This document shows, piece by piece, positions 15,251 to 29,921 of a stretch of DNA of 64,000 nucleotides (its first letter is position 1; the number at the start of each line of letters is the position of its first letter). The position numbers were made by a program, and so were the translations under genes. Below the pieces are notes generated by a model, which was given only the letters and a program-made list of their open reading frames with translations, searched no databases and was not told the DNA's origin. The DNA comes from Cellulomonas sp. APG4 (lineage in GTDB: Bacteria > Actinomycetota > Actinomycetes > Actinomycetales > Cellulomonadaceae): the NCBI RefSeq assembly GCF_009996735.1, contig NZ_JAACYI010000012.1, positions 1 to 64,000 of the forward strand, written 5' to 3'.

Positions 15251-18200
15251 ATGTCCCACATGCGCGCCTGGGCGGCAGCCTCGCTCGCGGCCGTGATGCT
15301 GATCCCTGTCGGGTCGGCGTCCGCGGCCACCGTCACCGACCCGGAGCAGGAGGACAGCAGGCTCGTCGGGGAAGGCGGCGCCGACCCTGCCAGCACCGCG
15401 CCCGGGTCGGAGGGCGACGGGACGGCTGCCTCGCCCGCCCCCGGCACCGCGGGCGGCGCCGCCGACCCGGGCACCGCCCCCGCGGTCCCGTCCGACGAGA
15501 TCTCGACGCCCCCGGTCGACCCACCGGCCGAGGAGGCGCGACCGCCGGCGAGTGGCGCGTCGGGTGAGGTCCGGGGGCCGACCGATGGTGAGCACCTCGA
15601 GCTCCCCCTGACCGGTGTGGCCCCCGATGGCCTCGCCGAGGAAGGGGCGCGTGACCCTGCGACCGGGCCGGAGGCGGAGGCGCTCGCAGCAGCAGTAGAC
15701 CCCCGTGCACCCGCGACGGCGATGCTGAGGAGCTCCGCTCCGACGCTCCTCGCCCTGACGCCCGCTCTGGACACCACTGCGGCCGACGTCACCGTGGTCG
15801 GCGCGAGCTGGACGTCGACCGGGGCGCAGGTGCGCGTGGACGTACGCCAGCTCGGAGAGGACGGTTGGGGGGACTGGGAGGCGCTGGCGGTGGACGACCA
15901 GGTCGAGAACGGTGGCCGCCCCGGCTCCGAGCCCTACGTCGTCGCCGACGGTGCGCAGATCCAGGTGCGGCTGGTGTCGGACGACGGCCTCGTGCCCGAG
16001 GACGCGCGCCTCGACCTCTTCGGCAGCGACGTGGTGGCGGCGGACACCGCGGGCACGGGAGGCTTCGGCTCGACCGTGCCGGCATCAGCGGCGACCGCCG
16101 CCGAACCGAGCCTCGCACAGGAGCCCGTGACGGCGGGGGGCCTGACGAGTGCGGTCTCGGCACCCACGCCGCGCATCTACTCGCGCAGCACCTGGGGGGC
16201 CGCGGCCCCCGCGGGCGGCATGGACATCGGCGAGGTGCGAGGCGTCACCGTCCACCACACGGCCGGGACCAACACGTACTCGTCGTCCCAGGTGCCGGCC
16301 GTGCTGCGCGGGATCCAGAACTTCCACGTCACGGGTCGCGGTTGGTCCGACATCGGGTACAACTTCCTCGTCGACAGGTTCGGGCGTCTGTGGGAGGGCC
16401 GCGCGGGCGGCATCCTCAACACGACGAAGGGGATCCACGCCGCGGCGTTCAACGGTGTCACGTCCGGGATCTCGGTCATGGGCAACTTCGACCAGGTGGG
16501 CGTCTCGTCCACCATCCGGAACTCCTTGGCGCGACTGATCGCCTGGAAGCTCGCCGTCCACGGCGTCGGCGCGAGCGGGACCATGGTGTACAACGGCACC
16601 TCGTACCCGGTGATCGTGGGGCACCGGGACGTCCCGGGCACGTCGACCGCGTGCCCGGGCCGTTATCTCTACTCGGCCCTTCCCACGCTCCGCGCGGCGG
16701 CGGCTCAGCTCCAGAGCTATCCGCGGTCCTCGATCGACCACGACCTGACGGGTGACGGGCGGGCCGACGTGCTCGCGTGGGGCGCGACGTCGGACGTGCT
16801 CACGGCTGATCCCATCCCGGTCGCGAGCGGCAAGCGGATCGGCAACGGCTGGTCGATGATGGACGTCCTCGTGGGGAGCCCGCCCCTGCGCGCGGGTCGG
16901 GCGCCCGACCTGCTGGCGCGCGAGTCGTCGACGGGCCGCATGTGGGTCTACCACGGCGACGGGCGAGGTGGATTCGCCGGGCGGACGGCCTGGGGCAAGG
17001 GCTGGAACGCGATGTCGTCGATCATCGCGCCGGGGGACTGGGACGGGGACGGGCGGGCCGACGTGCTCGCCGTGGAGCGCGCCACCGGACTCCTCTACCT
17101 CTACCGCGGCGATGGGCTCGGCAACGTGCGTGCGCGTGTCCGCATCGGCAACGGGTGGAACACCATCAAGCACTTCGCCGGGGCGCGCGACTTCGACGGG
17201 GACGGCAACGTGGACCTGGTCGCGCTCGTCGAGAACACGGGAGAGCTCCGGCTCTACCCGGGTGACGGTCGCGGCGGATTCGGGCGGATGCACTCGCTGG
17301 GCAACGGCTGGTCCGGCTACGACACGGTGCTCGGCGCCGGTGACGTGACCGGGGACGGGGTCGGCGACCTCGTCCTGCGGAACGCCTCGAACGGCACGAT
17401 GACCACGGCGTCCGGCAAGGGCACGGGGTGGCTCGCGGGGATCCAGCACTGGGGAACGGGATGGAACTCGCGTGACCTCATCAGCATGGGCTGGAACTGG
17501 AACGGCCCCGGGCGGAGCGTGCTGATCGCGTCGGACACGGCCAACGGCCTGCTCTACGGCTACCAGGTGTCCACCGCGAGCCGCTTCAACGTCGTGGGCG
17601 GAGGAGGTCCGGACCTCAGCCGGGCCAAGGACGTCGTCGTCGTCGGAGACGTCACCGGTAGCGGACGGGCGAGCGTCGTGGTGCGAGACACGGCCGGGTA
17701 CCTCAACCTGCACACCCCCTCGGCCGCCGGCGTGCTCGGCGCAGGTACGCGGATCGGGAACGGGTGGGCCGACTGGTCCCAGGTGGCGGCCGCCGGCGAC
17801 TTCGACCACGACGGCACCCCGGACCTCCTCGGCGTCGACTCGGGAGGCCGGGTCTGGGTCTACCCGTTCCGCGCCGACGGCAGCGGGCGACTCCTGAGCT
17901 CGGAGCGCTTCCAGATCGGCAAGGGCTTCGGGAGCTACCGGGTGCTCGGTGTCGGGGGCTGGAAGCGGTGGTCGGGCTCCGACGTCATCGCGGTGCACCG
18001 CCGCACGGGCGAGATGCGCCTGTTCACGGGGCACGCGCGTGGCGGACTCAGTGGTGGGACCTTGATCGGCACGGGTTGGCAAGGGATGTCCGAGATCGTG
18101 GCGCTCGGGGACGCCACAGGTAGCGGGAACACCGACCTCTTCGCGCGCTCCGCGGTCGACGGACGCGCCTGGATCTACCCCGCGGACGGGCTCGGCGGCT

Positions 18201-18262
18201 TCGGCCAGCGTCGCGAGGTCACGGGGATCCCCGTCGCCAGCCTGGGCAAGGGCATGTCGTGA
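15251..18262 (+). CDS. Secreted N-acetylmuramoyl-L-alanine amidase with ten propeller-type repeats
   Basis: 1003 residues. Signal peptide 1-25 (cut near SASA/A), then an Ala/Pro/Glu-rich spacer, a beta-rich region (about 175-260), a zinc amidase of the PGRP/amidase_2 fold (about 307-490) and repeats from 498 to the end. Zinc ligands are visible as H335 (VTVHHTAG), H458 (VGHRD) and C468 (STACPG). The enzyme should cut the bond between muramic acid and the stem peptide. Ten repeats of about 50 residues follow; most carry a DxxGDG calcium loop and end in GxGW. ATG chosen for GGAG at 15242-15245. Its stop overlaps the next start (GTGA), tying it to the SpoIID protein. Confidence 0.93.
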   Translation: MSHMRAWAAASLAAVMLIPVGSASAATVTDPEQEDSRLVGEGGADPASTAPGSEGDGTAASPAPGTAGGAADPGTAPAVPSDEISTPPVDPPAEEARPPASGASGEVRGPTDGEHLELPLTGVAPDGLAEEGARDPATGPEAEALAAAVDPRAPATAMLRSSAPTLLALTPALDTTAADVTVVGASWTSTGAQVRVDVRQLGEDGWGDWEALAVDDQVENGGRPGSEPYVVADGAQIQVRLVSDDGLVPEDARLDLFGSDVVAADTAGTGGFGSTVPASAATAAEPSLAQEPVTAGGLTSAVSAPTPRIYSRSTWGAAAPAGGMDIGEVRGVTVHHTAGTNTYSSSQVPAVLRGIQNFHVTGRGWSDIGYNFLVDRFGRLWEGRAGGILNTTKGIHAAAFNGVTSGISVMGNFDQVGVSSTIRNSLARLIAWKLAVHGVGASGTMVYNGTSYPVIVGHRDVPGTSTACPGRYLYSALPTLRAAAAQLQSYPRSSIDHDLTGDGRADVLAWGATSDVLTADPIPVASGKRIGNGWSMMDVLVGSPPLRAGRAPDLLARESSTGRMWVYHGDGRGGFAGRTAWGKGWNAMSSIIAPGDWDGDGRADVLAVERATGLLYLYRGDGLGNVRARVRIGNGWNTIKHFAGARDFDGDGNVDLVALVENTGELRLYPGDGRGGFGRMHSLGNGWSGYDTVLGAGDVTGDGVGDLVLRNASNGTMTTASGKGTGWLAGIQHWGTGWNSRDLISMGWNWNGPGRSVLIASDTANGLLYGYQVSTASRFNVVGGGGPDLSRAKDVVVVGDVTGSGRASVVVRDTAGYLNLHTPSAAGVLGAGTRIGNGWADWSQVAAAGDFDHDGTPDLLGVDSGGRVWVYPFRADGSGRLLSSERFQIGKGFGSYRVLGVGGWKRWSGSDVIAVHRRTGEMRLFTGHARGGLSGGTLIGTGWQGMSEIVALGDATGSGNTDLFARSAVDGRAWIYPADGLGGFGQRREVTGIPVASLGKGMS
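16742..18259 (+). repeat. Ten ~150-bp coding repeats (two predicted five-bladed propellers)
   Basis: Ten degenerate units of the amidase C-terminus, each 'D-x-x-G-D-G, hydrophobic strand, L-x-L-Y-x-G-D-G, G-x-G-W'. Units 1, 3, 4, 5 and 8 keep most calcium-loop acids; units 6, 7, 9 and 10 have lost some. Ten equals twice the five found in the four sister genes. Confidence 0.8.
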
Positions 18263-20268
18263 GGCTGCGCCGACCGGTACGCGGCCTCCCGCTCGTCCTC
18301 GCCCTCGCCCTCGGGGCCGGCGTCGTCGCGCCCGCGGCGCCAGCGAGCGCGGCTCGGGTCCTCGAGATCGACGGCCGTGGGTACGGGCACGGCCGTGGGA
18401 TGTCCCAGCACGGCGCCCAGGGACGGGCGAAGGCGGGCCTGACGTACACCCAGATCATCGCCGCCTACTACCCGGGGACGAGCCTCGGGACGATCTCGGA
18501 CTCGACGTCGATGCGCGTCTGGATCCAGGGCGACGACGACGGCGTGACGACGGTCCGTGCCGAGAACGGCCTCTCCTTGCGGACCACGGCAGGGACGGTG
18601 GCACTCCCGACGGCGGTCGCCGGTCACGCTCCGTCGACGTGGCGCATCAGGCTCTCGTCGACCACCCTCGTCCTCGAGGCCTACGCCGGGGGCGCGTGGA
18701 GGACCCACGGGACCGCCGCACTCACCGAGGCCCTCGCGGGGCAGTCGGGCGCGACGCTCCAGGCGGCGGACGGCACGCTCGAGCTCCTTCTCGGCTCCAC
18801 GTACCGGGACTACCGCGGGACGGTCTCCGCGACACGCGTGACGAGCGGTGGCGCGACGACGCTGCGCACCGTGGTCACCTCCTCGACCGGCGACTACCTC
18901 CGTTCGGTCGTCCCCGCCGAGATGCCTGCGAGCTGGCATGCGCAGGCGCTCAGGTCACAGGCCGTGGCGGCGCGCACCTACGCGTCGTGGGACCGCGACG
19001 TGAACGTCAACGCGTCGTGGTACGACACGTGCGACACGACGAGCTGCCAGGTCTACAAGGGGAGGGAGGACCGTCGCGAGGACGGCACCCTCATCCGCTC
19101 CTACGAGCAGGCCGCGACGGACGCGGCGGTCGCCGCGACCGCCGGTCGCGTCGTGCTGTCCGGGGGTCGCCCGGCCTTCACGCAGTTCAGCGCGTCCAAC
19201 GGGGGGCACTCCGCCGCCGGCTCCCAGGCGTACCTCGCTGCGGCGCCGGACCCCTACGACGGCTACGCACCCTGGAAGGTCCAGCTCGCCGGGACGACGA
19301 TCTCCGCGCGGTACCCCGCGATCGGCACGTTCACCTCGATCAACGTGCTCGCACGTGACGGAGAGGGCCCGTGGGGAGGGCGTGTCGAGAACGTACGGAT
19401 CAACGGCACACTCGGTTCGGTGACCGTGACCGGGAGCGCCTTCCGGTCCGCCTTCGGTCTCCGGTCGACGCTGTGGGTGGCGAACACCACGACCGGTGCC
19501 GCGGAGGACACCCAGCGGGACTGGACGGGCGACGGCCTGGCCGACCTGATCGGGCGCGGACCGGACGGCAAGCTCTGGCTCTACCGCGGGAAGGGTGACG
19601 GCGGGTTCTGGCAGCGCCTCCAGATCGGCAAGGGCTGGCAGACGATGGACATGATGACCCGGATCCACGGCTTCGGAGGCACCGACGCCCCGGAGATCGT
19701 GACCACCAGCCACGACGGCAGGCTGTACCTGTACCCCGGCGACGGGAAGGGTGGCTTCACCACCCGCGTGCAGCTCGGTCACGGGTGGCACGTCTTCGAC
19801 ACGCTCATCGGGGTCGAGGGGTGGCACCGGGACGGGGCGCCCGGCATCATCGCCCGGGACGCTGCCGGCTCGTTGCTGCTCTACCCCGGAGACGGACGCG
19901 GACGGTTCGAGCCGAAGCGTGTGATCGGTGCACGTTGGGAGTCGATGGACGTGATCCTCTCGGCGGGAGACTGGGACGGGGACGGGGAGCCCGACCTGAT
20001 CACGCGGCACGAGCCGACGGGCGACCTGTACCTCTACCCGGGGACCGGGTCGGGTGGGTTCCGCGCCGCGGCCAGGATCGGCAACGGCTGGGGTGCGATG
20101 GACGCCATCGTGGGCGGGGCCGACTGGGACGGGGACGACAGGTACGACCTGATCGCTCGCGAGGAGGCGACCGGGAAGCTGTGGCTGTACCGCGGCGACG
20201 GGCAGGGCGGCTTCTTCCCGCGGGTGCAGGTCGGGAACGGCTGGACCGGCTTCAGCATCGTCAACTGA
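18259..20268 (+). CDS. Secreted SpoIID/LytB-domain protein with five propeller-type repeats
   Basis: 669 residues. Signal peptide 1-31 (ends PASA/A). SpoIID/LytB domain (about 38-410) with GYGHGRGMSQHGAQG (41-55), a region around YLRSVVPAEMP holding the likely catalytic Glu, QAVAARTYA, a Cys pair in CDTTSCQ and FSASNGGHSA. SpoIID proteins are lytic transglycosylases that act on peptide-stripped glycan; LytB was described as an enhancer of amidase LytC. The GTG start overlaps the amidase stop (GTGA), so the two activities are coupled, which fits that known partnership. Five repeats follow from residue 421. Ends opposite the dehydrogenase gene at a strong hairpin. Confidence 0.93.
   Translation: MRLRRPVRGLPLVLALALGAGVVAPAAPASAARVLEIDGRGYGHGRGMSQHGAQGRAKAGLTYTQIIAAYYPGTSLGTISDSTSMRVWIQGDDDGVTTVRAENGLSLRTTAGTVALPTAVAGHAPSTWRIRLSSTTLVLEAYAGGAWRTHGTAALTEALAGQSGATLQAADGTLELLLGSTYRDYRGTVSATRVTSGGATTLRTVVTSSTGDYLRSVVPAEMPASWHAQALRSQAVAARTYASWDRDVNVNASWYDTCDTTSCQVYKGREDRREDGTLIRSYEQAATDAAVAATAGRVVLSGGRPAFTQFSASNGGHSAAGSQAYLAAAPDPYDGYAPWKVQLAGTTISARYPAIGTFTSINVLARDGEGPWGGRVENVRINGTLGSVTVTGSAFRSAFGLRSTLWVANTTTGAAEDTQRDWTGDGLADLIGRGPDGKLWLYRGKGDGGFWQRLQIGKGWQTMDMMTRIHGFGGTDAPEIVTTSHDGRLYLYPGDGKGGFTTRVQLGHGWHVFDTLIGVEGWHRDGAPGIIARDAAGSLLLYPGDGRGRFEPKRVIGARWESMDVILSAGDWDGDGEPDLITRHEPTGDLYLYPGTGSGGFRAAARIGNGWGAMDAIVGGADWDGDDRYDLIAREEATGKLWLYRGDGQGGFFPRVQVGNGWTGFSIVN
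19519..20265 (+). repeat. Five ~150-bp coding repeats (predicted five-bladed propeller)
   Basis: Five units of the SpoIID protein, starting at the Asp codons of DWTGDG (19519), an eroded second and third unit (GFGGTDAP, GWHRDGAP), then DWDGDG (19969) and DWDGDD (20122). Spacing is 50-51 residues. The last unit ends GNGWTGFSIVN, a few residues longer than in the sister genes. Confidence 0.8.
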
Positions 20269-20295
20269 GCCGTCTGCCCGCCAGGCGGACGGGCA

Positions 20296-20340: not shown

Positions 20341-21636
20341 TCAGTCGGCCTGTCCGATGACGACGCGCGTCACACCGGTCCACCGGGACGGGTCGGTCGC
20401 GTCGCGGCCGTCGACGAGCACGCGGACCCCCGGGAGATCCTGAGGGCTGAGGTCGGCGTACTCCGCGTGGTCGGCCTGGAGGATGGCAGCGTCGACCGGT
20501 GAGCCGGCCTGGTAGGGCGGCAGGCCGAGGTCCTCCAGCTCGGCGTCGCTGTACAGCGGGTCGTGGACGACGGGGAGCGCGCCCGCTGCGCGCAGCGCGG
20601 CGACCGTGGGGAACACCCCGGAGAAGGCCGTCTCCTTGACCCCGCCGCGGTACGCGGCCCCGAGGACCACGACAGTGCGTCCCTCGAGCGAGCCGAGGGA
20701 CGTCGTCAGGAGCGAGACGGCGTACTCGGGCATCGCGGCGTTGGCCTCGCGTGCGGCGCGCACGACCGTGGCTGCAGGGTCGTTGAACAGGTAGAGCCGC
20801 GGGTACACGGGGATGCAGTGGCCGCCGACGGCGATGCCGGGGCGGTGGATGTGGCTGTAGGGCTGCGAGTTCGACGCCTCGATCACGGTGTGGACGTTGA
20901 TGCCGTGCTCGGCCGCGAACCGGCCGAACTGGTTCGCGAGCGCGATGTTGACGTCCCGGTACGTGGTCTCGGCGAGCTTGGCCATCTCGGCGGCCTCCGC
21001 CGAGCCCATGTCCCAGACGCCGTTGCCGCGAGGGAGGTCGGGACGCTCGTCGAAGTCGAGCACCGCCTCGTAGAACTCGATCGCCCGGGCGGTCCCGTCC
21101 GGGGAGAGCCCACCGACCAGCTTGGGGTACCGGCGGAGGTCGGCGAACACCCGCCCGGTGAGAACCCGCTCGGGTGAGAACACGAGGTGGAAGTCACTGC
21201 CCTCGGTCAGGCCGGACAGCTCCTCGATGAGCGGCTTCCAGCGCGTACGCGTCGTCCCGACGGGCAGCGTCGTCTCGTAGGAGATCAAGGTCCCGGGGGT
21301 GAGGTGCTCGGCGAGCGAGCGCGTCGCCGCGTCCATCCAGCCGAAGTCCGGCTGCCAGGTCGCGTCGTCGACGAAGAGCGGGACCACGATCACGACGGCG
21401 TCCGCCCCGGGGACGGCGTCGGCGTAGTCGGTGGTGGCACGCAGACGTCCGGCCGGCACGAGCTCCTCGAGCCTCTCCTGGAGTCCTGCCTCGCCGGGGA
21501 AGGGCTCGGTGGCCCCGTTGACGAGGTCGACCACCGACCGGTTCACGTCGACGCCGACGACCTCATGGCCCTTGGAGGCGAACTGGACGGCGAGCGGGAG
21601 ACCGATCTTTCCCAGGGCGATGACTGCGATCTTCAC
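20341..21636 (-). CDS. UDP-N-acetyl-hexosamine 6-dehydrogenase (WbpA/WecC type)
   Basis: 431 residues. NAD-dependent enzyme that oxidises C6 of UDP-GlcNAc or UDP-ManNAc twice to the uronic acid. N-terminal Rossmann motif is altered to IALGKIGLP (6-14) from the usual GxGxxG. Catalytic centre residues are K220 (EMAKLAETTYRDVN) and C274 in GGHCIPVYP. GTG start with GAGGT upstream, divergent from the 2-epimerase gene and sharing a symmetric -10 element. With the oxidoreductase, aminotransferase and acetyltransferase at 29978-32678 and the epimerase, it completes a WbpA-B-E-D-I set, so I favour UDP-GlcNAc as substrate. If epimerisation comes first it would instead be a WecC making UDP-ManNAcA. Confidence 0.88.
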   Translation of the reverse strand: MKIAVIALGKIGLPLAVQFASKGHEVVGVDVNRSVVDLVNGATEPFPGEAGLQERLEELVPAGRLRATTDYADAVPGADAVVIVVPLFVDDATWQPDFGWMDAATRSLAEHLTPGTLISYETTLPVGTTRTRWKPLIEELSGLTEGSDFHLVFSPERVLTGRVFADLRRYPKLVGGLSPDGTARAIEFYEAVLDFDERPDLPRGNGVWDMGSAEAAEMAKLAETTYRDVNIALANQFGRFAAEHGINVHTVIEASNSQPYSHIHRPGIAVGGHCIPVYPRLYLFNDPAATVVRAAREANAAMPEYAVSLLTTSLGSLEGRTVVVLGAAYRGGVKETAFSGVFPTVAALRAAGALPVVHDPLYSDAELEDLGLPPYQAGSPVDAAILQADHAEYADLSPQDLPGVRVLVDGRDATDPSRWTGVTRVVIGQAD

Positions 21637-21747: not shown

Positions 21748-22800
21748 GTGCGAGTCCTCAGCGTCGTCGGTGCACGTCCGCAGTTCGTGAAGCTCGCCCC
21801 CGTCGCGGAGGCCTTCGCCGCCGCTGGGGTCGACCACCGCATCGTGCACACCGGCCAGCACTACGACCCGGGGATGTCGGACGTGTTCTTCGCCGACCTC
21901 CGCATCCCGAAGCCCGACGTGAACCTGACGGTGGGATCAGCGAGCCACGGTGTCCAGACGGGGGCCATGCTCGGCGCGCTCGAGGAGGTGATGCTCCGTG
22001 AGCAGCCGGACTGGGTGCTCGTCTACGGGGACACCAACTCCACGCTGGCCGCTGCCCTCGCCGCCGTCAAGATCCACCTCCCCCTCGCACACCTCGAGGC
22101 GGGCCTTCGATCGTTCAACCGCAGGATGCCGGAGGAGCACAACCGGGTCCTCACCGATCACGCCGCCGACCTCCTCCTCGCGCCGACCGCGGTCGCGATG
22201 GACCACCTGGCCGAGGAGGGGCTCGCGCGGCGTTCCGTGCTCGTCGGCGACGTGATGACGGATGTGTGCCTCCGGGTGCGCGACGCCGTCCTCGCGGACC
22301 CACCGCCTCCTCCCGCGGGGCTCGCGCGGGGCGGGTACGTCGTGGCGACCATCCACCGAGCCGAGAACACCGACGACCCTCAGCGCCTCCGGGCAGTCGT
22401 CGCCTCCCTGGCGGGCCTGAGCGTGCCGGTCCTCCTGATGGCCCACCCCCGACTTCGTGCGCGGTGCCAGGAGCAGGGGATCGACCTCGAGAGCGGCTCC
22501 CTCCGCGTCGTCGACCCCCTGCCGTACCCGGGCATGGTCGCAGCGGTCCTGGGCTCGAGCGGTGTGGTGACCGACTCGGGCGGGTTGCAGAAGGAGGCCT
22601 TCCTCCTCCGCAGGCCCTGCACCACCCTGCGGACGGAGACCGAGTGGGTCGAGACGCTCGAGGGGCGGTGGAACGTCCTGGCGCCCGACCTGGTCGGGCT
22701 GGACGCGCTCGCGGCGCGGCCTGCGCCCGCGGAGCCCACGCTGCAGCCCTACGGGTCGGGCGACGCCGCCCGGCAGGTCGTGACAGCGCTCGGCACGTGA
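21748..22800 (+). CDS. Non-hydrolysing UDP-sugar 2-epimerase (WecB/WbpI family)
   Basis: 350 residues. Inverts C2 of a UDP-N-acetylglucosamine-type sugar. Family motifs are complete: VVGARPQFVKLAP (6-18), HTGQHYDPGMSDVFF (35-49), HLEAGLRSF...MPEEHNR near 114-132 and VVTDSGGLQKEAF near 272-284. GTG start with AGGAAGGA at 21733-21740 and 7-nt spacing. Sequence alone does not separate WecB (UDP-GlcNAc to UDP-ManNAc) from WbpI (the 2,3-diacetamido-uronate form). The rest of the Wbp set in this window makes the WbpI role attractive. Either way the product is a mannuronic-type donor for the wall polymer. Confidence 0.9.
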   Translation: MRVLSVVGARPQFVKLAPVAEAFAAAGVDHRIVHTGQHYDPGMSDVFFADLRIPKPDVNLTVGSASHGVQTGAMLGALEEVMLREQPDWVLVYGDTNSTLAAALAAVKIHLPLAHLEAGLRSFNRRMPEEHNRVLTDHAADLLLAPTAVAMDHLAEEGLARRSVLVGDVMTDVCLRVRDAVLADPPPPPAGLARGGYVVATIHRAENTDDPQRLRAVVASLAGLSVPVLLMAHPRLRARCQEQGIDLESGSLRVVDPLPYPGMVAAVLGSSGVVTDSGGLQKEAFLLRRPCTTLRTETEWVETLEGRWNVLAPDLVGLDALAARPAPAEPTLQPYGSGDAARQVVTALGT

Positions 22801-22900: not shown

Positions 22901-24184
22901 GTGCGTATCCTCCAGGCGCCTTCGAACATCGCGAACCAGGCGTGGCTCAATGCCGAGGCGCTCCGGGCGCGCGGCCATGAGGTGCACGTGTGGCAGTTCG
23001 GGCGCACGCGGTTCGCCTACCCCGCCGATCGCGTGTTCGAGGACGTCAGCAAGCCACGGACCATCGTGAACCTGCTCATGGAGGCGATGGCTCTCGAACC
23101 CGACGTCGTGCACTTCCACTACGCGAGGTCCCTCGTGCCGGCGGTGGGCGGGCTGCCGTGGCTCTGGGACCTCCCGGTCTGGAAGGCGCTCGGGGTCAAG
23201 GTCGTCATGTCCTTCCACGGCTCCGAGGTGCGGATCCCGCGGGTCGCGAAGGCGCTGGACCCTTGGAGCGCCTTCCACTTCGCCGACCTCCCCATCGACG
23301 AAGCGGCGATCGAGGACGCGCTGGCGGTGATCCGCACCTACGCGGACGCGACGACGGTGTCGAACGTCGCCAACCTCCCCTACGCGCCCGGGGCCACGTA
23401 CCTCCCCCTCTCGGTGGACCTGACGGCGATCCCTCCCCATCCGCTGGCGGGCGGTGATCGCGTGCGTCCGGTGGTGGCGCACGCACCGAGCGCCCGTGGC
23501 CTCAAGGGGACGGAGTTCGTCCTCGACGCTTTCGACAGGCTGCGTGCTGAAGGGGTCGCTTTCGACATCGACCTCATCGAGGGCGTCACGAACAGCGAGG
23601 TGCTCGAGCGGTACGCGCGTGCCGACATCGTGGTGGAGAAGCTCGTCAACGAGGGCTTCGGTGTAGCGGCGCTCGAGGCCCTTGCCGTCGGACGGCCCGT
23701 CGTCTCGCGCGTGGCCGACGTCGTGCGTGATCGGCACCCGGACCTGCCGATCGTGGACGCGACGCCGGAGACCTTCGAGAAGGTGCTCCGGGGCCTGATC
23801 GTGGACCGTGGGGAGCGTCAGCGCCTCGCGGCGGCGGGTCGCCCGTACGTCGAGGCGAACCACGACATCTCCTTGACGGGCGTTCGGCTCGAGGAGGTCT
23901 ACGCGGGGCCGGGCGTCCCGGCTCCCGTCGTCTTCCCAGGCTGGACGGTCCCGCAGCGGGACCGTGCGCTCGGCCAGGTGCGAGCACAGCTCGACGAGCT
24001 GAGGCTCGCGACGAGCCTGCGCGAGTCCCGTTCCGAGCAGGTGATGCGTGCACTCGAGAGAGAGGTCGGCACCCTCTCCGCGCGGAACCGCGAGCTCGAG
24101 CGTCAGCTCGTGGAAGCACGTCACGGGCTGGCCTACCGAGTCCGGCGCCGCCTGCGGCAGATCGGATCGGCGAGGTCTCGCTGA
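22901..24184 (+). CDS. Glycosyltransferase, paralogue C of a three-member family, with C-terminal coiled coil
   Basis: 427 residues. GT-B enzyme with the signposts of the products at 7611 and 13704: LQAPSNIANQAWLNAEAL at the N-terminus (a variant of the 'NxAGQxW' opening), FHGSEVRIPR, PSARGLKGTEFV and EGFGVAALEALAVGRPVVS. The last 75 residues are heptad-rich and charged (ALEREVGTLSARNRELERQL), predicted to be a coiled coil, and end in a basic tail that may bind the membrane. Leaderless GTG start. It sits next to the 2-epimerase gene, so its donor may be the mannuronic-type sugar, but that is inference. Confidence 0.85.
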   Translation: MRILQAPSNIANQAWLNAEALRARGHEVHVWQFGRTRFAYPADRVFEDVSKPRTIVNLLMEAMALEPDVVHFHYARSLVPAVGGLPWLWDLPVWKALGVKVVMSFHGSEVRIPRVAKALDPWSAFHFADLPIDEAAIEDALAVIRTYADATTVSNVANLPYAPGATYLPLSVDLTAIPPHPLAGGDRVRPVVAHAPSARGLKGTEFVLDAFDRLRAEGVAFDIDLIEGVTNSEVLERYARADIVVEKLVNEGFGVAALEALAVGRPVVSRVADVVRDRHPDLPIVDATPETFEKVLRGLIVDRGERQRLAAAGRPYVEANHDISLTGVRLEEVYAGPGVPAPVVFPGWTVPQRDRALGQVRAQLDELRLATSLRESRSEQVMRALEREVGTLSARNRELERQLVEARHGLAYRVRRRLRQIGSARSR

Positions 24185-24380: not shown

Positions 24381-26231
24381 TTGTCCGCAACCGCATCGAG
24401 CCGCCGTACGGTCGGGCTCGTCGTCGTCACCTGTGCACTGCTCACCCTGAGCCCGGGGCCTGCGCTCGCGGCCGCGCCGGAGCCCGTCGACACCGCAGGA
24501 ACCGACGCGGCAGAACACGCGGCTGCGGAAGCCGAGGCAACGGATCTCCCTGCCGCAGCGGCGGATCCGGACGGCGCGTCGGAGCCGACGGCCGCGCCCG
24601 TCCCCCCGGTGCCGGACCCTCAGCCCGAGCCCGAGGACGCGCAGACGCCGGGCGAGATCGTCGCTGATGTCGAGGCGCCGGACGCTGGTCAGCTCGCGAT
24701 GCTGCGGGTGCCGGCCGCGCCCACGAAGGCGCTCCCGAGCATCCTGGACCGCCACCCGGGGATGCAGTACACGGTCTCGTGCGACCCGGTGAACCGCCCC
24801 GGTGTGGTGGCGTTCGCGGGACTGCTGACGACGCACTACGGCAAGACGCGTCACCACATGTCACGTGCGTGCAAGGCGGGGGACCGGAGCCAGCACTACG
24901 ACGGGCGTGCGCTCGACTGGACGCTCAACGCCTACGACGCCGGGGACAAGGCCATCGGGGACTCGGTCAACGCGTGGCTCACGGCGAACAACGGCGCGAT
25001 CGCGAAGCGCTTCGGCCTCATGTACATCATCTGGAACCGCAAGATCTGGTACGTCCACCGGCCCGGCGCGTGGGAGGCCTACAGCGGGCCCAGCCCGCAC
25101 ACGGACCACATCCACTTCAGCTTCACCTGGGACGGTGCGATGAAGCGCACGTCGTGGTGGACCTCGGTTCCCGTGGCGACGCCCGACCAGGGCACGTGCC
25201 GCGTGTACACGGGTCAGTACGCGCCCCGCTACAGCGGGCGTCGTACCTCGCCCTGCCCGACGACGTCGCCGGCCCCGCCCTCTCCCTACCCGGTGTACCT
25301 CCCGGGGGCGGTCCACTCGAACATCGCGACGGCTCAGGCCTCGCTCGGCCTCACCGGCCCTGCCGTGGACGGCGTGTTCGGGTCGGCCACCTTGAGCGCC
25401 CTCCTCGCGCACCAGCGTCGGCTCGGCCTGCCCGTGACCGGCGTGCTCGACAACGCCACGTGGCTGAGCCTCGACGCGGTGAAGCCCAAGCCGCCCTTCG
25501 CGCAGATCGTCGCCAGCCGGGACGTGACGGCCGACGGCCGCGCGGACGTCGTCGCCGTCGACTCGGTGGGCAGGCTGCACGTGTACCCCGGGGCGGGCAA
25601 CGGTGGCTTCTCCCGGGTCCGGCCCTTCGGTCTCGGCTGGCGGGACATGCAGGTGCACGCCCCCGGGGACTGGGACGGCGACAAGGTCTCCGACCTCGTG
25701 GCGGTCGACGCCTCGGGCGTGCTCTGGCTCTACCCCGGCGACGGCAGGGGAGGGTTCGGCGGACGGGAGCGGATCGGTCACGGATGGACCGGCTTCCGCA
25801 TCGTCCCCGCAGGCGACGTCGACGGGAACGGGACCGCTGACCTGCTCGCGATCGACGCCGCCCAGCGGCTGTGGCTCTACCCGGGCGACGGACGTGGTGG
25901 CTTCGGTGCCCGGAGGGCCGCCGGCCACGGCTGGGGCGGGTTCGACCTGTACGCCGCGGGCGACATGAACCGTGACGGCCGCGCGGACATCCTGAGCATC
26001 GACGGCGCCGGCGTGCTCTGGTACTACGCCGGGCGCGGAAATGGCGCATTCTCCCAGCGTGTGCGCGCCGGTCACGGCTGGACCGGATTCACGTTCGCCT
26101 CGGGCGCCGATTTCAACGGTGACCGGCTCAACGACCTGTTGGGGCGCGACGGACGGGGCCGGCTCTGGTTCTACTCGGCTCGTGGGCCTGCCCGGTTTGC
26201 GGCAAAGGTGCAGGTCGGAGCGGGGTGGTGA
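24381..26231 (+). CDS. Secreted M15-like (D-Ala-D-Ala/LAS type) peptidase with PG-binding domain and five repeats
   Basis: 616 residues. TTG start supported by GGGGGAGG at 24368-24375. Signal peptide 1-31, acidic Ala/Pro/Glu linker to about 105, peptidase domain about 118-260, Cys-containing linker, peptidoglycan-binding domain about 305-365, then five repeats of exactly 49 residues. The peptidase has SQHYDGRALD (170-179), which fits the LAS metallopeptidase pattern SxHxxGxAxD (H172, D179), and PHTDHIHF (239-246) with H243/H245. It belongs to the 'ARB-07466-like' actinobacterial group; cleavage of peptidoglycan stem peptides is the expected role but is not proven for that group. Confidence 0.88.
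   Translation: MSATASSRRTVGLVVVTCALLTLSPGPALAAAPEPVDTAGTDAAEHAAAEAEATDLPAAAADPDGASEPTAAPVPPVPDPQPEPEDAQTPGEIVADVEAPDAGQLAMLRVPAAPTKALPSILDRHPGMQYTVSCDPVNRPGVVAFAGLLTTHYGKTRHHMSRACKAGDRSQHYDGRALDWTLNAYDAGDKAIGDSVNAWLTANNGAIAKRFGLMYIIWNRKIWYVHRPGAWEAYSGPSPHTDHIHFSFTWDGAMKRTSWWTSVPVATPDQGTCRVYTGQYAPRYSGRRTSPCPTTSPAPPSPYPVYLPGAVHSNIATAQASLGLTGPAVDGVFGSATLSALLAHQRRLGLPVTGVLDNATWLSLDAVKPKPPFAQIVASRDVTADGRADVVAVDSVGRLHVYPGAGNGGFSRVRPFGLGWRDMQVHAPGDWDGDKVSDLVAVDASGVLWLYPGDGRGGFGGRERIGHGWTGFRIVPAGDVDGNGTADLLAIDAAQRLWLYPGDGRGGFGARRAAGHGWGGFDLYAAGDMNRDGRADILSIDGAGVLWYYAGRGNGAFSQRVRAGHGWTGFTFASGADFNGDRLNDLLGRDGRGRLWFYSARGPARFAAKVQVGAGW
25521..26228 (+). repeat. Five coding repeats, exact 147-bp period
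   Basis: Conserved Asp codons at 25521, 25668, 25815, 25962 and 26109, each 147 bp apart. The protein ends 39 residues after the last Asp, exactly as in the CAP protein and the metalloprotease. Unit pattern: DxDGDGxxDLLAxDxxG, LWLYPGDGRGGF, IGHGW. Confidence 0.9.
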
Positions 26232-26258
26232 CGCTGAGGCGGCGCGCTACGCCACCCG

Positions 26259-26274
26259 TGTGAAATGCGTCACA
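26259..26274. promoter_or_regulatory. Perfect Crp/GlxR-type palindrome
   Basis: TGTGA-AATGCG-TCACA is a full match to the TGTGA-N6-TCACA consensus of the cAMP receptor protein family (Crp in mycobacteria and streptomycetes, GlxR in corynebacteria). It lies in the 139-bp gap between the M15-like peptidase gene and the CAP-protein gene, centred about 104 bp before the predicted leaderless start of the latter. In an otherwise GC-rich gap a chance full match is unlikely. Confidence 0.65.
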
Positions 26275-26356
26275 GACCTGTGGGGCTTTTTATCCCAATT
26301 CGGACATGCGCCGCTTTTCGCTCGTCACCCGTCTAGGTGAAGAATCTCCTGGCTGC

Positions 26357-26362
26357 TACGTT
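26357..26362 (+). promoter_or_regulatory. -10 element TACGTT, leaderless start of CAP gene
   Basis: TACGTT, 8 nt, then ATG at 26371. No Shine-Dalgarno sequence lies before the ATG. Upstream bases 26280-26340 are unusually AT-rich for this window, which fits a promoter region. Confidence 0.5.
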
Positions 26363-26370
26363 CCGGCGGC

Positions 26371-27633
26371 ATGAGACGATTGTCGTTCGCGCTGGCTGTG
26401 GTATTGGGGGCAGGCCTGATGGTGGCCGCGCCGGCCGCACCAGCGCATGCGGCGAGCCTCACCACGTCCCAGTACGAGGCCCAGATCGTGGGGTCCGTGA
26501 ACGCGGCCCGAGAGCGCGCCGGGCTCGCCCCTCTCACCGTCAGCGTCAAGGTGGCGACGGTCGCGCGAGGGTGGTCGCAGACCATGGCGTCGAGCGGCTC
26601 CTTCCGTCACAACCCGTCCTACGCCTCCCAGATGCCCTCGGGCTGGTCGGCTGCGGGGGAGAACGTGGCGTACGGGTACACCACGGTGGGGCAGTACTCG
26701 CCGGCCACGATCCACGAGAACCTCATGGGCTCCTCGGGCCACCGGGCCAACATCCTGAAGAGCTCGTACACCCACCTCGGTGTCGGTGTCGCCTTCGTCG
26801 AGCGGGGAGGGAAGAGCTACGTCTACGTGACCCAGAACTTCGGCGCCTACCCGGCCGCCGCCGCTCCCGACGGGCCGACCGTGAGCGCCTCGACCCCGTT
26901 CGAGCAGGTCGTGCTCACCCCCGACGTCACCGGCGACCCGTACGACGACCTGTTCGCGGTCGACTCGTCGGGGAGGCTGTTCACCTACGCGGGTCGGTCC
27001 GACGGCTCGGTCCGCGCCGTGCGTTCCCTGGGCACAGGATGGTCGGCCTACGACGTCCACGCCCCGGGCGACTGGGACGGTGACGGTCGCGCCGACCTCG
27101 TCGCCGTGGACGGCTCAGGTGTGCTGTGGCTCTACCGCGGTGCGGGCGGCGGCGCGGTCGGCGCCCGGACGAAGATCGGCCACGGCTGGAGCAGCTTCCG
27201 GATCATCCCCGCCGGCGACGTCAACGGTGACCGCGCGGCCGACCTGCTCGCGATCGACTCGGCGGAGCGGCTGTGGCTCTACCCGGGCGACGGTCGTGGC
27301 GGCTTCCGCGCGCGGCTGCAGGTGGGCAACGGCTGGGGCGGGTTCGTGCTGCACGCAGCGGGCGACCTCACGCGTGACGGCCGTGCGGACATCGTCGGCA
27401 TCGACGAGGCCGGGAGGCTGTTCTTCTACGCGGGACGTGGCAAGGGCTACTTCCGCCAGCGTGTCCAGGTCGGTCACGGCTGGAGCGGTTACACGTTCAC
27501 CTCGGGTGGCGACGTCAACGCGGACGGCCTCGGTGACCTCGTCGGGCGCGACCCGCAGGGGCGTCTGTGGTTCTACGCCGGTCGTCAGGGTGGCACCTTC
27601 GCGATGAAGACGCAGATCGGTCGGGGCTGGTAG
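26371..27633 (+). CDS. Secreted CAP (SCP/PR-1) domain protein with five repeats
   Basis: 420 residues. Signal peptide 1-27 (ends AHA/A). CAP domain about 32-160 with the classic features H80 (SFRHN), E97 (AGENVA), H124 (SSGHRANIL) and the closing YVTQNFG. Bacterial CAP proteins are secreted, and some bind or act on the cell envelope, but no general catalytic activity is agreed. The repeat module has exact 49-residue spacing (D185, 234, 283, 332, 381) and runs to the last residue. The ATG appears leaderless, and a perfect Crp/GlxR site lies upstream, so this gene may answer to cAMP. Neighbours before and after carry the same module on different enzymes. Confidence 0.9.
   Translation: MRRLSFALAVVLGAGLMVAAPAAPAHAASLTTSQYEAQIVGSVNAARERAGLAPLTVSVKVATVARGWSQTMASSGSFRHNPSYASQMPSGWSAAGENVAYGYTTVGQYSPATIHENLMGSSGHRANILKSSYTHLGVGVAFVERGGKSYVYVTQNFGAYPAAAAPDGPTVSASTPFEQVVLTPDVTGDPYDDLFAVDSSGRLFTYAGRSDGSVRAVRSLGTGWSAYDVHAPGDWDGDGRADLVAVDGSGVLWLYRGAGGGAVGARTKIGHGWSSFRIIPAGDVNGDRAADLLAIDSAERLWLYPGDGRGGFRARLQVGNGWGGFVLHAAGDLTRDGRADIVGIDEAGRLFFYAGRGKGYFRQRVQVGHGWSGYTFTSGGDVNADGLGDLVGRDPQGRLWFYAGRQGGTFAMKTQIGRGW
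26923..27630 (+). repeat. Five coding repeats, exact 147-bp period
   Basis: Asp codons at 26923, 27070, 27217, 27364 and 27511. Blade-by-blade resemblance to the modules at 25521 and 29211 (third unit DLLAID..RLWLYPGDGRGGF, fifth unit GRLWFYAGR) shows that whole modules were duplicated, not single units. Confidence 0.9.
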
Positions 27634-27737
27634 CGGGACGGCACTCAAGGTGTCGCCCGGGTATGCCGATGACGGGGTGACCACGGCCATCCTGTGGCGC
27701 CCACCGCGGCCCCGCCGCCCGAGAAGAAGGAGCGGGC

Positions 27738-29921
27738 ATGGTGCGTCGCCGCCTCATCGCCGTCCTGTCCACCGCCGTCCTCGCCGCGACCGCCCTGCCG
27801 GGAACCTCTCCCTCGGCGGCTGCGGCAGCCGGAGCCTCCGGGGCGGACCAGGCCGCGACCGTCGTCGGCGAGGTCGAGCGTTTCACGCTCGAGCTGCGCG
27901 ACCGCACGACGCTCGACCTGACCGTCGTGCGCACGGAGGACGGGGGCGCGGTCGCCGTCGACGAAGCGGCTCTCGCCGACGTCGCCTCGGGGACCGTGGT
28001 CGAGGCGGATCTCGTGGACCTCCCCGACCCGGGCGCGGCCGTCACCGACGCCGACGCCGTCGCCCAGGTCGCCGCCGTCGAGGTGGTGGCCACCACGCAC
28101 GCGGCAGGGGCGGCCGCCGACGCAGCGTTCGCCGAGATCCGGACCGCCGACCGCCCGGTCTACATGATGACCTCGCGCATCGGTGCACAGGCGAGTGACG
28201 CCGTGACGCCCTCGGTGCTGCGCACGGAGCTGGTCGAACGCGTGGCGCCCTACTGGGACGACTCGACCGACGGCGCCGTCCGGTTCACCGAGGGTGCCGC
28301 CTTCGAGGCGGACGCGTACACGGGCTGGGGGAGCACGGCGGACTGCGGCCTGGACAAGGTCGTGGCGTTCCTCGACTGGAGCGTCGCGCAGGCGGGTACG
28401 GGTCCGGTGGTGTGGACCGGGCGCCACACGGTCGTGTACACGCCGGCGCTCGCCGCGTGCCCCTTCGAGGGGATCGCGAACGTCGCGGACGGCGGTGCCG
28501 CGTGGATCAACGGTGCGGACGGTGAGTTCCGGTGGTACACGATGGCGCACGAGCTCGGCCACACCCTCACGCTGGGGCACTCGAGCTCACGCGTGCACTG
28601 CGACGGCGGCCGCGCGGACGGGACGGGGCTGCAGTGCGACGGGACGGAGTACGGCGACGCCTACGACGTGATGGGCGTCGCGTACCAGACGGAGCCGACG
28701 CTGAACGCCGGCCCCGTGAGCGGCGCTCATCTCGACACGATGGGGCTCCTCGACACGACGAACACGGCCTTCGCCGCCGCGGGTGCGGTCGTCACCCTCG
28801 CCCCGGTCGGCTCGGGGGCCGGCAAGCGTTTCGTCCGCTTCAGCACCGGGGGCACGACCTACTACGTCGAGTACCGTGCCGCGACCGGCCGGGACGCGGA
28901 CCTTGCGACCTCACGCGCCGGCTGCCCGTTCTCGCCCTGCACCGTGACGCGCTTCGAGCCGGGCGTGGTCGTGCGGCGGGTGGACGAGACCGGCCTCGGG
29001 GCCGACACCTACCTGCTCGACGCGGCCGTCGAGGATCCCGCCTCGAGCCCGACGGACCCCTACTTCGTCGTCGAGCCGGGCCGGAGCTTCGTGACCGCCG
29101 ACGGCAGGATCCGTGTGACGGTGACGTCGGCGAGCGCCTCTGGTGCCACGGTCAACCTCGTCAACGCGCAGGCTCCGACCACGCCCTTCCGCAGCCTGGT
29201 GGCCAGCCCCGACCTCACGGGTGACCGGGTCGGGGACCTGCTCGGTGTCGACGGCGACGGAGTGCTGTTCCTCTACCCGGGCCGCGGAGACGGACGGGTG
29301 GCGTCTCCCACCAAGTTCGGTGGCGGCTGGGACGCCTACGAGGTCCACGCTCCCGGTGACTGGAACGGCGACGGCCGAGGGGACCTCGTCGCCGTCGATG
29401 CCGCAGGGAAGCTCTGGCTGTACCCGGGCAACGGACGAGGAGGCTTCCTCTCCAGGTCCCAGATCGGCAACGGGTGGACGACCTTCCGCATCGTCCCGGC
29501 AGGGGACATGAACGCCGACGGCAGGACGGACCTCCTGGCGATCGACTCGTCGCACCGCCTGTGGCTCTACCCCGGCGACGGGCGAGGTGGGTTCACTCCC
29601 CGCATCCAGGTGGGCAACGGCTGGGACGGGTACGACCTGTACGCCGCTGGCGACGCCAACGGCGACGGCCGCGCGGACATCCTCAGCGTCGATGCCGCGG
29701 GTCAGCTCTTCTACTACGCGGGCAAGGGCGGGGGCTACTTCTACGGTCGGGTGAAGGCCGGGCACGGCTGGACCGGCTACGAGTTCGCGTCGGGCGCGGA
29801 CTTCAACCGGGACGGACGGGCCGACCTCATGGGCCGCGACTCGAACGGCCGCCTGTGGTTCTACGCGGGCCGTGGGCCGGGCAGGTTCGCGATGAAGGTG
29901 CTCGTGGGCCAGGGCTTCTGA
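27738..29921 (+). CDS. Secreted metzincin-type zinc metalloprotease with five repeats
   Basis: 727 residues. Signal peptide about 1-30, a propeptide-like region to about 135, a protease domain about 140-345, a beta-rich domain about 350-475, then five repeats to the C-terminus. Zinc site HELGHTLTLGH (H271, E272, H275, H281) with a Met-turn DVMG (M312) defines a metzincin; the long cysteine-containing loop between them resembles gametolysin-like (M11) enzymes. C203/C241, C288/C300 and C396/C401 could form disulfides. ATG with GAAGGAG upstream. It ends at a strong hairpin. A role in processing surface proteins or in predation or defence is possible; substrates are unknown. Confidence 0.9.
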   Translation: MVRRRLIAVLSTAVLAATALPGTSPSAAAAAGASGADQAATVVGEVERFTLELRDRTTLDLTVVRTEDGGAVAVDEAALADVASGTVVEADLVDLPDPGAAVTDADAVAQVAAVEVVATTHAAGAAADAAFAEIRTADRPVYMMTSRIGAQASDAVTPSVLRTELVERVAPYWDDSTDGAVRFTEGAAFEADAYTGWGSTADCGLDKVVAFLDWSVAQAGTGPVVWTGRHTVVYTPALAACPFEGIANVADGGAAWINGADGEFRWYTMAHELGHTLTLGHSSSRVHCDGGRADGTGLQCDGTEYGDAYDVMGVAYQTEPTLNAGPVSGAHLDTMGLLDTTNTAFAAAGAVVTLAPVGSGAGKRFVRFSTGGTTYYVEYRAATGRDADLATSRAGCPFSPCTVTRFEPGVVVRRVDETGLGADTYLLDAAVEDPASSPTDPYFVVEPGRSFVTADGRIRVTVTSASASGATVNLVNAQAPTTPFRSLVASPDLTGDRVGDLLGVDGDGVLFLYPGRGDGRVASPTKFGGGWDAYEVHAPGDWNGDGRGDLVAVDAAGKLWLYPGNGRGGFLSRSQIGNGWTTFRIVPAGDMNADGRTDLLAIDSSHRLWLYPGDGRGGFTPRIQVGNGWDGYDLYAAGDANGDGRADILSVDAAGQLFYYAGKGGGYFYGRVKAGHGWTGYEFASGADFNRDGRADLMGRDSNGRLWFYAGRGPGRFAMKVLVGQGF
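29211..29918 (+). repeat. Five coding repeats, exact 147-bp period
   Basis: Asp codons at 29211, 29358, 29505, 29652 and 29799. The protein ends 39 residues after the last Asp with GQGF, where the sisters end G-x-GW. Confidence 0.9.

What the first reader, a model, noticed from the sequence alone, without database searches (positions are those of the whole stretch)
16742..29921. Five secreted enzymes share a C-terminal module of exactly 5 or 10 repeats: a predicted five-bladed propeller
The amidase, SpoIID protein, M15-like peptidase, CAP protein and metzincin all end in repeats of about 49 residues with a DxxGDG loop, an L-W-L-Y strand and a G-x-GW ending. Counting units gives 10, 5, 5, 5 and 5. 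FG-GAP/integrin propellers need seven blades, so five points elsewhere. Tachylectin-2 is a known five-bladed GlcNAc-binding propeller with repeats of about 47 residues and a similar 'IGxGGW' motif. I infer a calcium-bound, tachylectin-like lectin module that targets unrelated catalytic heads to the same wall glycan, encoded inside the glycan's own synthesis locus.
Basis: partly seen in the sequence, partly recalled or inferred. Interest (0 to 1): 0.92.

Follow-up and report, generated by a model that had tools for sequence, protein, structure and literature searches.

The report
Propeller lectins on cell-wall enzymes
Five secreted enzymes of an actinobacterium end in the same predicted five-bladed, sugar-binding ring, and some relatives carry known wall-anchoring domains on the same enzyme in the same gene neighbourhood, so the ring is probably an unrecognised way of fastening enzymes to the cell's own wall polymer.

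Summary
In detail: five genes (15182-29921) end in 10, 5, 5, 5 and 5 units. In 38 related loci 48 of 55 ORFs give 5 or 10, eight of the tens by counting a gap. AlphaFold gives five four-stranded blades (pLDDT 93). The units are FG-GAP_3/VCBS repeats, not tachylectin. The best sequence match of solved structure is the umbrella-toxin lectin UmbA1; the best fold match is UmbA4 bound to teichuronic acid. All 23 FG-GAP_3 matches of this genome lie in these genes, among a predicted UDP-ManNAc3NAcA pathway, the uronic sugar of UmbA4's ligand. Near that pathway in relatives the same amidase head ends instead in CWB2 or SLH repeats, known wall-polymer anchors. One such genome has CWB2 on SpoIID too; another has SLH on a metzincin-like protein and a VanY peptidase. 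I conclude the propeller is a non-covalent anchor to the cell's own wall polymer. Binding, ligand and metal are untested. Propeller and CWB2 coexist in 6 of 11 CWB2 genomes, and only 3 of 18 named loci, mostly other families, show wall-polymer genes nearby.

The parts
15182..18262 (+). Secreted Amidase_2 protein with ten C-terminal blades
   Evidence: Pfam Amidase_2 E 5.4e-16, FG-GAP_3 E 2.2e-25
16715..17464 (+). Amidase propeller module A (units 1-5)
   Evidence: unit boundaries; pairs with module A of G147
17465..18232 (+). Amidase propeller module B (units 6-10), unit 6 degenerate
   Evidence: unit boundaries; pairs with module B of G147; AF2 model of the ten-unit stretch too poor to use (pLDDT 64.5)
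18259..20268 (+). Secreted SpoIID/LytB protein with five C-terminal blades
   Evidence: Pfam SpoIID E 3.1e-23; NCBIfam SpoIID_LytB E 4.8e-48
19501..20244 (+). SpoIID propeller module
   Evidence: unit boundaries; groups with SpoIID modules of G147, G130 and Pseudactinotalea
24381..26231 (+). Secreted M15-like protein with PG_binding_1 and five C-terminal blades
   Evidence: PG_binding_1 E 1.8e-9, FG-GAP_3 E 3.4e-25; M15 itself not matched by Pfam
25485..26228 (+). Propeller module whose structure was predicted (units from 25503)
   Evidence: AF2 pLDDT 93.0, pTM 0.88, five four-stranded blades
26371..27633 (+). Secreted CAP protein with five C-terminal blades
   Evidence: CAP E 2.5e-17, FG-GAP_3 E 2.2e-27
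26905..27630 (+). CAP propeller module
   Evidence: 62% identical to the M15-like protein's module; blade i resembles blade i most
27738..29921 (+). Secreted metzincin-type protein with five C-terminal blades
   Evidence: Peptidase_M11 E 1.2e-4, FG-GAP_3 E 3.6e-28; HELGHTLTLGH in the translation
29193..29918 (+). Metzincin propeller module
   Evidence: 63% identical to the M15-like protein's module
20341..21636 (-). UDP-ManNAc-type nucleotide-sugar dehydrogenase
   Evidence: NDP-sugDHase E 1.4e-87, over cut-off; UDPMaNacDH E 1.8e-77, below cut-off
21751..22800 (+). Non-hydrolysing UDP-GlcNAc 2-epimerase (WecB/WbpI type)
   Evidence: wecB 241 bits over cut-off 210; homology starts at residue 189 of the 21187 ORF
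22901..24184 (+). GT4-type glycosyltransferase
   Evidence: Glycos_transf_1 E 1e-8
29978..30958 (-). UDP-GlcNAc 3-dehydrogenase-like oxidoreductase (WbpB type)
   Evidence: GFO_IDH_MocA E 1e-17; UDP-GlcNAcDh_Arch E 1.9e-56, below cut-off
30967..32061 (-). DegT sugar aminotransferase (WbpE type)
   Evidence: DegT_DnrJ_EryC1 E 1.8e-122
32058..32678 (-). Hexapeptide N-acetyltransferase (WbpD/NeuD type)
   Evidence: Hexapep E 7.6e-23; NeuD_NnaD E 7.4e-23, below cut-off
392..1780 (-). LCP glycopolymer transferase (attaches polymer to peptidoglycan)
   Evidence: LytR_cpsA_psr E 1.1e-41
3780..4634 (+). TagH-like ABC exporter ATPase
   Evidence: teichoic acid export ATPase E 3.2e-68, below cut-off
6187..15059 (.). 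Six frames read as glycosyltransferases
   Evidence: Three (8731, 10727, 12175) match Pfam GT4 models over cut-off, two (6187, 7443) below it, 13704-15059 none; ORFs it hits in other loci are also hit by the 22901 glycosyltransferase

Best explanation
The module is a five-bladed VCBS-type (FG-GAP_3) beta-propeller lectin that works as a non-covalent wall anchor. Each enzyme is exported by its signal peptide. The C-terminal propeller then binds the secondary wall glycopolymer made by the surrounding genes, most likely a teichuronic-acid-like chain containing ManNAc3NAcA, through the G-x-GW pockets between blades, with the D-rich loops holding a metal ion. This keeps wall-remodelling enzymes (amidase, SpoIID, peptidases, CAP) on the producer's own wall. 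It works like the CWB2 and SLH anchors that replace it on the same amidase head in relatives. Shown here by computation: predicted fold, unit rule, locus, swap of modules. Inferred: binding, ligand, metal, self-targeting.
For: Fold: AF2 pLDDT 93, pTM 0.88, five blades of four strands. Lectin kind: fold match 1 is UmbA4 bound to teichuronic acid (E 6.8e-12), then GlcNAc-binding fungal lectins; best sequence match among solved structures is the UmbA1 chain of 8w20 (E 1.9e-26). Locus: all 23 FG-GAP_3 matches of a 99.98% complete genome lie in these five genes, among the five enzyme types assigned to UDP-ManNAc3NAcA in S. griseus (paper). Swap: of 35 family genomes with WbpB, 14 have an amidase-head match within 30 kb on the same contig; its C-terminus is the propeller in 7, CWB2 in 3, SLH in 1, an unnamed GWAxD repeat in 3. 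Three of the 7 (G049, G098, G112) also have a CWB2 amidase in the same locus. Other enzymes switch too: G144 amidase and SpoIID both carry CWB2; G143 amidase, metzincin-like protein and, on another contig, a VanY peptidase carry SLH. Precedent: C. difficile CWB2 proteins are encoded beside the locus of PSII, the polymer they bind. Proximity: 10 of 20 module loci of the family hold LCP, GT or Wbp genes at set thresholds, 0 of 20 arbitrary windows.
Against: No binding data of any kind. The anchor types are not exclusive: 6 of 11 CWB2 genomes also have the propeller. A genome with all five sugar genes uses CWB2 and has no propeller match (G144), so the sugar pathway does not dictate the anchor. 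9 of 20 module-positive relatives lack WbpB. In the same genus G147 has propellers on contigs without such genes nearby. Of 18 named loci, mostly other families, only 3 show LCP or GT nearby. Genomes in the counts are related, so p values (0.0008 for module with WbpB) overstate independence.
Confidence: 0.6

Rival explanations
1. The propeller binds peptidoglycan itself (GlcNAc or MurNAc), the substrate of the heads, like LysM or PG_binding domains, and the glycan locus is incidental.
For: Fold neighbours after UmbA4 are lectins solved with GlcNAc or named GlcNAc-specific. Module proteins with other heads exist away from glycan genes.
Against: Replacement by CWB2 and SLH, which bind secondary polymers, on the same amidase head; clustering with polymer genes in the family; the window's M15-like protein already has a separate PG_binding_1 domain.
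Confidence: 0.17
2. The five proteins are weapons: the lectin aims secreted lytic enzymes at competitors bearing a matching wall polymer, as UmbA lectins do for umbrella toxins.
For: Best matches of solved structure are UmbA lectins, which bind other Streptomyces (paper). In S. griseus the sole umbA lies beside the polymer genes.
Against: No UmbA-type protein with this module: all FG-GAP_3 matches of the genome are on these five genes, none with a trypsin head. Exchange with CWB2 and SLH on one head fits self-anchoring. No UmbC ALF repeat was found, but no control rang either, so this says nothing.
Confidence: 0.12
3. The propeller is a rigid, metal-stabilised scaffold that binds proteins or environmental polysaccharides, not the wall.
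For: VCBS propellers have diverse partners and roles (PMC8023676). Modules occur on haem peroxidase, subtilase and DUF4082 proteins.
Against: The GW motif of sugar-binding VCBS propellers is kept in 25 of 30 units, GF in two more; position in wall-polymer loci and anchor swaps.
Confidence: 0.08
4. One reading: a tachylectin-2 family GlcNAc lectin.
For: Five blades, units of about 49 residues, GW motif; VCBS propellers and tachylectins belong to one supercluster (PMC8023676).
Against: No tachylectin match in Pfam, PDB sequences or the 50 folds shown; D-rich AB loop in 23 of 30 units here and absent from tachylectin-like propellers.
Confidence: 0.03

Closest known systems
UmbA lectin domains of Streptomyces umbrella toxins (UmbA1 in PDB 8w20; UmbA4 in PDB 9oee)
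   Same: Homologous propeller: the 8w20 chain aligns over profile positions 4-238 of 254, five repeats by eye, E 1.9e-26; UmbA4 with teichuronic acid is fold match 1. UmbA4 binds a wall polymer with ManNAc3NAcA; the window encodes the five enzyme types for that sugar.
   Different: [quoted passage not shown] UmbA4 has six blades. Here the heads are wall enzymes and the polymer genes are the cell's own. The PDB names the 8w20 chain 'Secreted esterase'; that it is UmbA1 follows from the paper.
CWB2 (PF04122) and SLH (PF00395) wall anchors
   Same: C-terminal repeated modules shared by different secreted enzymes near wall-polymer genes; they occupy the same position on the same amidase head in relatives. 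CWB2-PSII precedent.
   Different: Unrelated folds: CWB2 domains are toprim-like and form a trefoil of three; here a five-bladed propeller.
VCBS actinolectins and the VCBS supercluster (Pereira and Lupas 2021)
   Same: FG-GAP_3 repeats, D-rich AB loop, GW motif in loop DA', secreted, actinobacterial.
   Different: Described as a lone propeller or one after a TIM barrel, function unknown; here on amidase, SpoIID, peptidase and CAP heads in polymer loci. Their sequences were not compared.
Tachylectin-2
   Same: Five blades, similar repeat length, GW motif.
   Different: No sequence match and not among the 50 folds shown; tachylectin-like propellers lack the D-rich loop.
Integrin-type FG-GAP propeller
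   Same: D-rich AB loop; distant profile match to integrin alpha-6 (E 3.6e-4).
   Different: Seven blades against five here.

Membership tests
VCBS / FG-GAP_3 (PF13517) propellers | Match above Pfam's curated cut-off | tested here: met
   79-98 bits per protein against 26.9, five of five proteins
VCBS / FG-GAP_3 (PF13517) propellers | D-rich AB loop and GW motif in loop DA' | tested here: met
   D-rich pattern in 23 of 30 units, G-x-G-W/F ending in 27 of 30; motifs described in PMC8023676
VCBS / FG-GAP_3 (PF13517) propellers | Propeller of four-stranded blades | tested here: met
   Predicted model of one module, pLDDT 93; 21 listed strands read as 5 x 4 with one split
Five-bladed propeller | Closed ring of exactly five blades | tested here: inconclusive
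Tachylectin-2 family | Sequence membership (Pfam or PDB) | tested here: not met
   No match at E<=0.1 in Pfam nor at E<=1 in PDB sequences
Tachylectin-2 family | No D-rich AB loop | tested here: not met
   Loop pattern in 23 of 30 units
Integrin-type FG-GAP | Seven blades | tested here: not met
   Five
UmbA proteins | Trypsin-like N-terminal domain that binds UmbB | tested here: not met
   Heads are amidase, SpoIID, PG_binding, CAP, M11
UmbA proteins | Lectin propeller homologous to UmbA lectins | tested here: met
   8w20 chain E 1.9e-26
Non-covalent wall-polymer anchors (functional class of CWB2, SLH) | One module type on several unrelated secreted heads | tested here: met
   Five heads in the window; subtilase, DUF4082, peroxidase elsewhere
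Non-covalent wall-polymer anchors (functional class of CWB2, SLH) | Interchange with known anchors at one position | tested here: met
   Amidase head with CWB2, SLH or propeller
Non-covalent wall-polymer anchors (functional class of CWB2, SLH) | Binds a secondary wall polymer | not testable with these tools
   Needs protein and wall material
VCBS actinolectins | Membership of that cluster | not tested

The most novel reading that the evidence does not exclude
Actinobacteria have a further general wall-anchor system beside CWB2 and SLH: five-bladed propeller lectins that read the cell's own teichuronic-acid-like polymer. The lectins of umbrella toxins are such self-anchors turned against competitors that make a matching polymer.
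Probability: 0.35. Interest if true: 0.82.

Novelty: new variant of a known kind. Interest (0 to 1): 0.64.

Why it matters
A module like this one occurs in 75 of 394 genomes sampled from the class (some of these are probably UmbA lectins of Streptomyces-sized genomes, not sorted out here). The VCBS actinolectins named in 2021 had no characterised function. If these modules are wall anchors, many unexplained secreted proteins gain a predicted address, and the neighbouring sugar genes give a testable ligand. It would also suggest where the lectins of umbrella toxins came from, and offer modules for displaying proteins on actinobacterial cells.

Tried and rejected
Tachylectin-2 as the family: rejected by Pfam, PDB sequence search and the 50 folds shown. 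Seven-bladed FG-GAP: rejected by count and model. Open solenoid: the model shows blades of four strands with high confidence, and counts come in fives.

Ten-unit stretch as one ten-bladed ring: not settled by structure (pLDDT 64.5 from three rows). The tree favours two modules: nine A modules and nine B modules of other amidases form separate clades, and the window and G147 form an A pair and a B pair of their own. The script split the tens at a GW near the middle, unevenly for L079 and L086.

One anchor type per genome: not upheld; 6 of 11 CWB2 genomes also carry the propeller. Homogenisation of all modules within a genome: not seen for amidase and SpoIID modules, which follow their heads; only the M15, CAP and metzincin modules form a clade with seven G147 and G130 modules. 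A test for umbrella-toxin genes by the ALF repeat was uninformative because no control rang.

Literature: full-text searches listed, in the rows shown, no paper whose title or abstract opening describes a propeller as a wall anchor for peptidoglycan enzymes. Only the held open-access library was searched. Read beyond listings: PMC13274773 (passages, and sections 8, 9 and 12), PMC8023676 (parts 1 and 2 of 3), PMC11062931 (passages), PMC5842191 (passages). SLH papers were seen as listings with abstract openings only.

Full report
WHAT IS THERE. Five genes between 15182 and 29921 encode proteins with unrelated heads and one kind of C-terminus; signal peptides were read by eye only. By unit endings and spacing they carry 10, 5, 5, 5 and 5 units of 49-54 residues. 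Pfam names the units FG-GAP_3 (PF13517), 79-98 bits per protein against a cut-off of 26.9. In the whole genome (3.74 Mb, 48 contigs, 99.98% complete) all 23 FG-GAP_3 matches at E<=0.001 lie in these five genes. The genome has no CWB2 or SLH match, and its four LysM matches lie on two frames on other contigs.

THE NUMBER FIVE IS REAL. A one-unit profile from the window's 30 units was run on 38 loci from other genomes and found 55 ORFs with units. 36 give 5 and 12 give 10, where a gap of about twice the usual spacing counts as one weak unit; eight of the tens rest on such gaps, and the L075 ten includes two overlapping first hits. The other seven are L068 (second ORF, 4), L070 (3 and 2 in two frames), L071 (4), L073 (one ORF, 4), L078 (one ORF, 7, at the contig end) and L089 (4, with a fifth visible in its tail). 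The loci were found with five-unit queries. In the M15-like, CAP and metzincin modules, units at the same position are 63% identical on average, units at different positions 43%, within or between proteins: the five-unit module was copied as a whole. In a tree of 66 modules, amidase modules A and B form separate clades across genera (with a separate window-G147 pair each), SpoIID modules fall mainly into two SpoIID clades, and the three similar window modules join seven modules of two genomes of the same genus on varied heads. The bootstrap of that tree had not fully settled and its deep forks are weak.

FOLD. AlphaFold2 on 25485-26228 with 21 related rows gave pLDDT 93.0, pTM 0.88, and strands that read as five blades of four. 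The ten-unit amidase model was poor (64.5) and I draw nothing from it. Foldseek against the PDB (50 of 1556 matches shown) ranks first 9oee_A, UmbA4 bound to S. griseus teichuronic acid (E 6.8e-12, TM 0.68 by query length), then fungal GlcNAc lectins (PVL, PAL and an Agrocybe lectin). By sequence, a profile of 22 modules hits the 8w20 chain best (E 1.9e-26), then the Burkholderia lectin BP39L and two of those fungal lectins. The PDB calls the 8w20 chain 'Secreted esterase'; the paper that deposited 8w20 states that UmbA1 was modelled at each spoke. Tachylectin-2 appears in neither list.

LITERATURE ON THE FOLD. PMC8023676 (parts 1 and 2 of 3 read) puts VCBS (PF13517), integrin-type and tachylectin propellers in one supercluster. 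It gives the D-rich AB loop as calcium-binding in PVL and integrin, the GW of loop DA' as part of the sugar pocket in tachylectin-2 and PVL, and names actinobacterial 'VCBS actinolectins' without known function. PMC13274773 (passages and sections 8, 9, 12) shows the six-bladed UmbA4 binding a teichuronic-acid-like polymer of GalNAc and ManNAc3NAcA on wall teichoic acid, and lists 12 families of five-bladed UmbA lectins.

THE LOCUS. An LCP transferase (392-1780), a TagH-like ABC ATPase (3780-4634) and six frames read as glycosyltransferases (6187-15059; three over Pfam cut-off, two below, one without a match) precede the amidase. Between the five genes lie a UDP-ManNAc-type dehydrogenase, a UDP-GlcNAc 2-epimerase and a glycosyltransferase (20341-24184), and after them a UDP-GlcNAc 3-dehydrogenase-like oxidoreductase, a DegT aminotransferase and a hexapeptide acetyltransferase (29978-32678). 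These are the five enzyme types that PMC13274773 assigns to UDP-ManNAc3NAcA in S. griseus. Several NCBIfam matches are below their cut-offs, so the exact sugar is a prediction.

RELATIVES. In the family sample (150 genomes, this one included) the module occurs in 21 and the WbpB-type gene in 35. Without the window's genome, 11 of 20 module genomes have WbpB against 34 of 149 overall (Fisher p 0.0008; genomes are related, so this is generous). In 7 of those 11 module and WbpB lie within about 3 kb; in G138 and G043 they are on separate contigs, in G016 and G050 80-90 kb apart. The amidase with ten units beside a SpoIID with five, next to WbpB, E and D, recurs in L079, L080, L081, L084, L086 and L143; in L079, L080, L086 and L143 an LCP gene matches strongly, in L081 and L084 weakly at the locus edge. 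L083 and L085 have LCP but no WbpB or D. In G112, G049 and G098 one stretch of about 30 kb holds LCP, WbpD-E-B, propeller amidase, propeller SpoIID, glycosyltransferases, 2-epimerase, a CWB2 amidase and the dehydrogenase. Of 20 module loci from 15 of the 20 module-positive relatives, 10 contain LCP, glycosyltransferase or Wbp homologues at set thresholds (E<=1e-20; Wbp at 55% identity); some loci are only 3-10 kb long. Of 20 arbitrary 20-kb windows from four module-positive genomes, none does; of 18 named loci, mostly Micrococcaceae and Microbacteriaceae, 3 do. Two module loci fetched later: L139 (G054) had none, L143 (G098) has the full set; G050, G068 and G109 were not fetched. So the link is clear in this family and weak elsewhere.

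THE SWAP. The amidase head is common (123 of 150 family genomes at E<=1e-15), so I asked what it carries near WbpB. On the same contig within 30 kb, 14 of 35 WbpB genomes have it. Seven carry the propeller (the window, G059, G085, G142, G049, G112, G098). Three carry CWB2 (G144, G051, G106), one SLH (G143), and three an unnamed repeat with GWAxD motifs (G009, G139, G016). G049, G112 and G098 have a second, CWB2 amidase 19-25 kb from WbpB (Pfam check for G112 and G049, frame check for G098). In G144 SpoIID also carries CWB2; in G143 a protein whose head is 35% identical to the metzincin over 173 residues also carries SLH, as does a VanY peptidase on another contig. Amidases fetched elsewhere, often beside LCP genes, end in ChW repeats (L101) or in no Pfam domain (L103). 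CWB2 binds the polymer PSII in C. difficile, and the two loci are neighbours (PMC5842191, passages); SLH domains bind secondary wall polymers (PMC6081394, abstract opening). The simplest reading is that propeller, CWB2 and SLH do the same job: hold wall enzymes on the producer's secondary polymer.

WHAT IS NOT SHOWN. No tool here tests binding. The ligand rests on the neighbouring genes and on a six-bladed relative with its own specificity. CWB2 appears, without the propeller, in a genome with all five sugar genes (G144), and CWB2 and propeller coexist in six genomes, so the anchor does not follow simply from the sugar. The weapon reading, modelled on UmbA, is less likely but not excluded.

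VERDICT.

Noticed in passing
L093:6817-9420, L096:11870-14155, L111:5884-9174: The same amidase head ends in another repeat of about 90 residues with GWAxD and VYVDG-like motifs; Pfam finds nothing over its cut-off there. All three are near WbpB genes. Possibly a further undescribed wall anchor.
   Followed up: partly
L110:8026-10233: An amidase ending in five units (by eye) of a different GDWDGDG repeat that Pfam does not match at E<=0.01; another frame of that locus (2781-4349) has five units by the unit profile.
   Followed up: no
L097:9206-15407 and L141:8857-11268 (genome G143): Amidase, metzincin-like protein and VanY peptidase of one genome all carry SLH repeats, the first two beside an LCP gene.
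   Followed up: partly
L073:7466-8887 (genome G147): A frame with five units near its start followed by a peptidase-like stretch with HEVGHYLGLGH: the module seems N-terminal here.
   Followed up: no
L054:5012-10732 and L066:4919-10774: Very large Arthrobacter proteins with an animal-type haem peroxidase, RTX repeats, fn3 domains and the same five-unit module at the C-terminus.
   Followed up: no
window 25485-26228 against L057-L059, L061, L063-L065: The ring may close differently: window modules of the M15-like, CAP and metzincin type end at the last GxGW, while these Arthrobacter and Paenarthrobacter modules go on for six residues (such as AMTALV) that could supply a strand. Their residues before the first matched unit were not inspected.
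   Followed up: no
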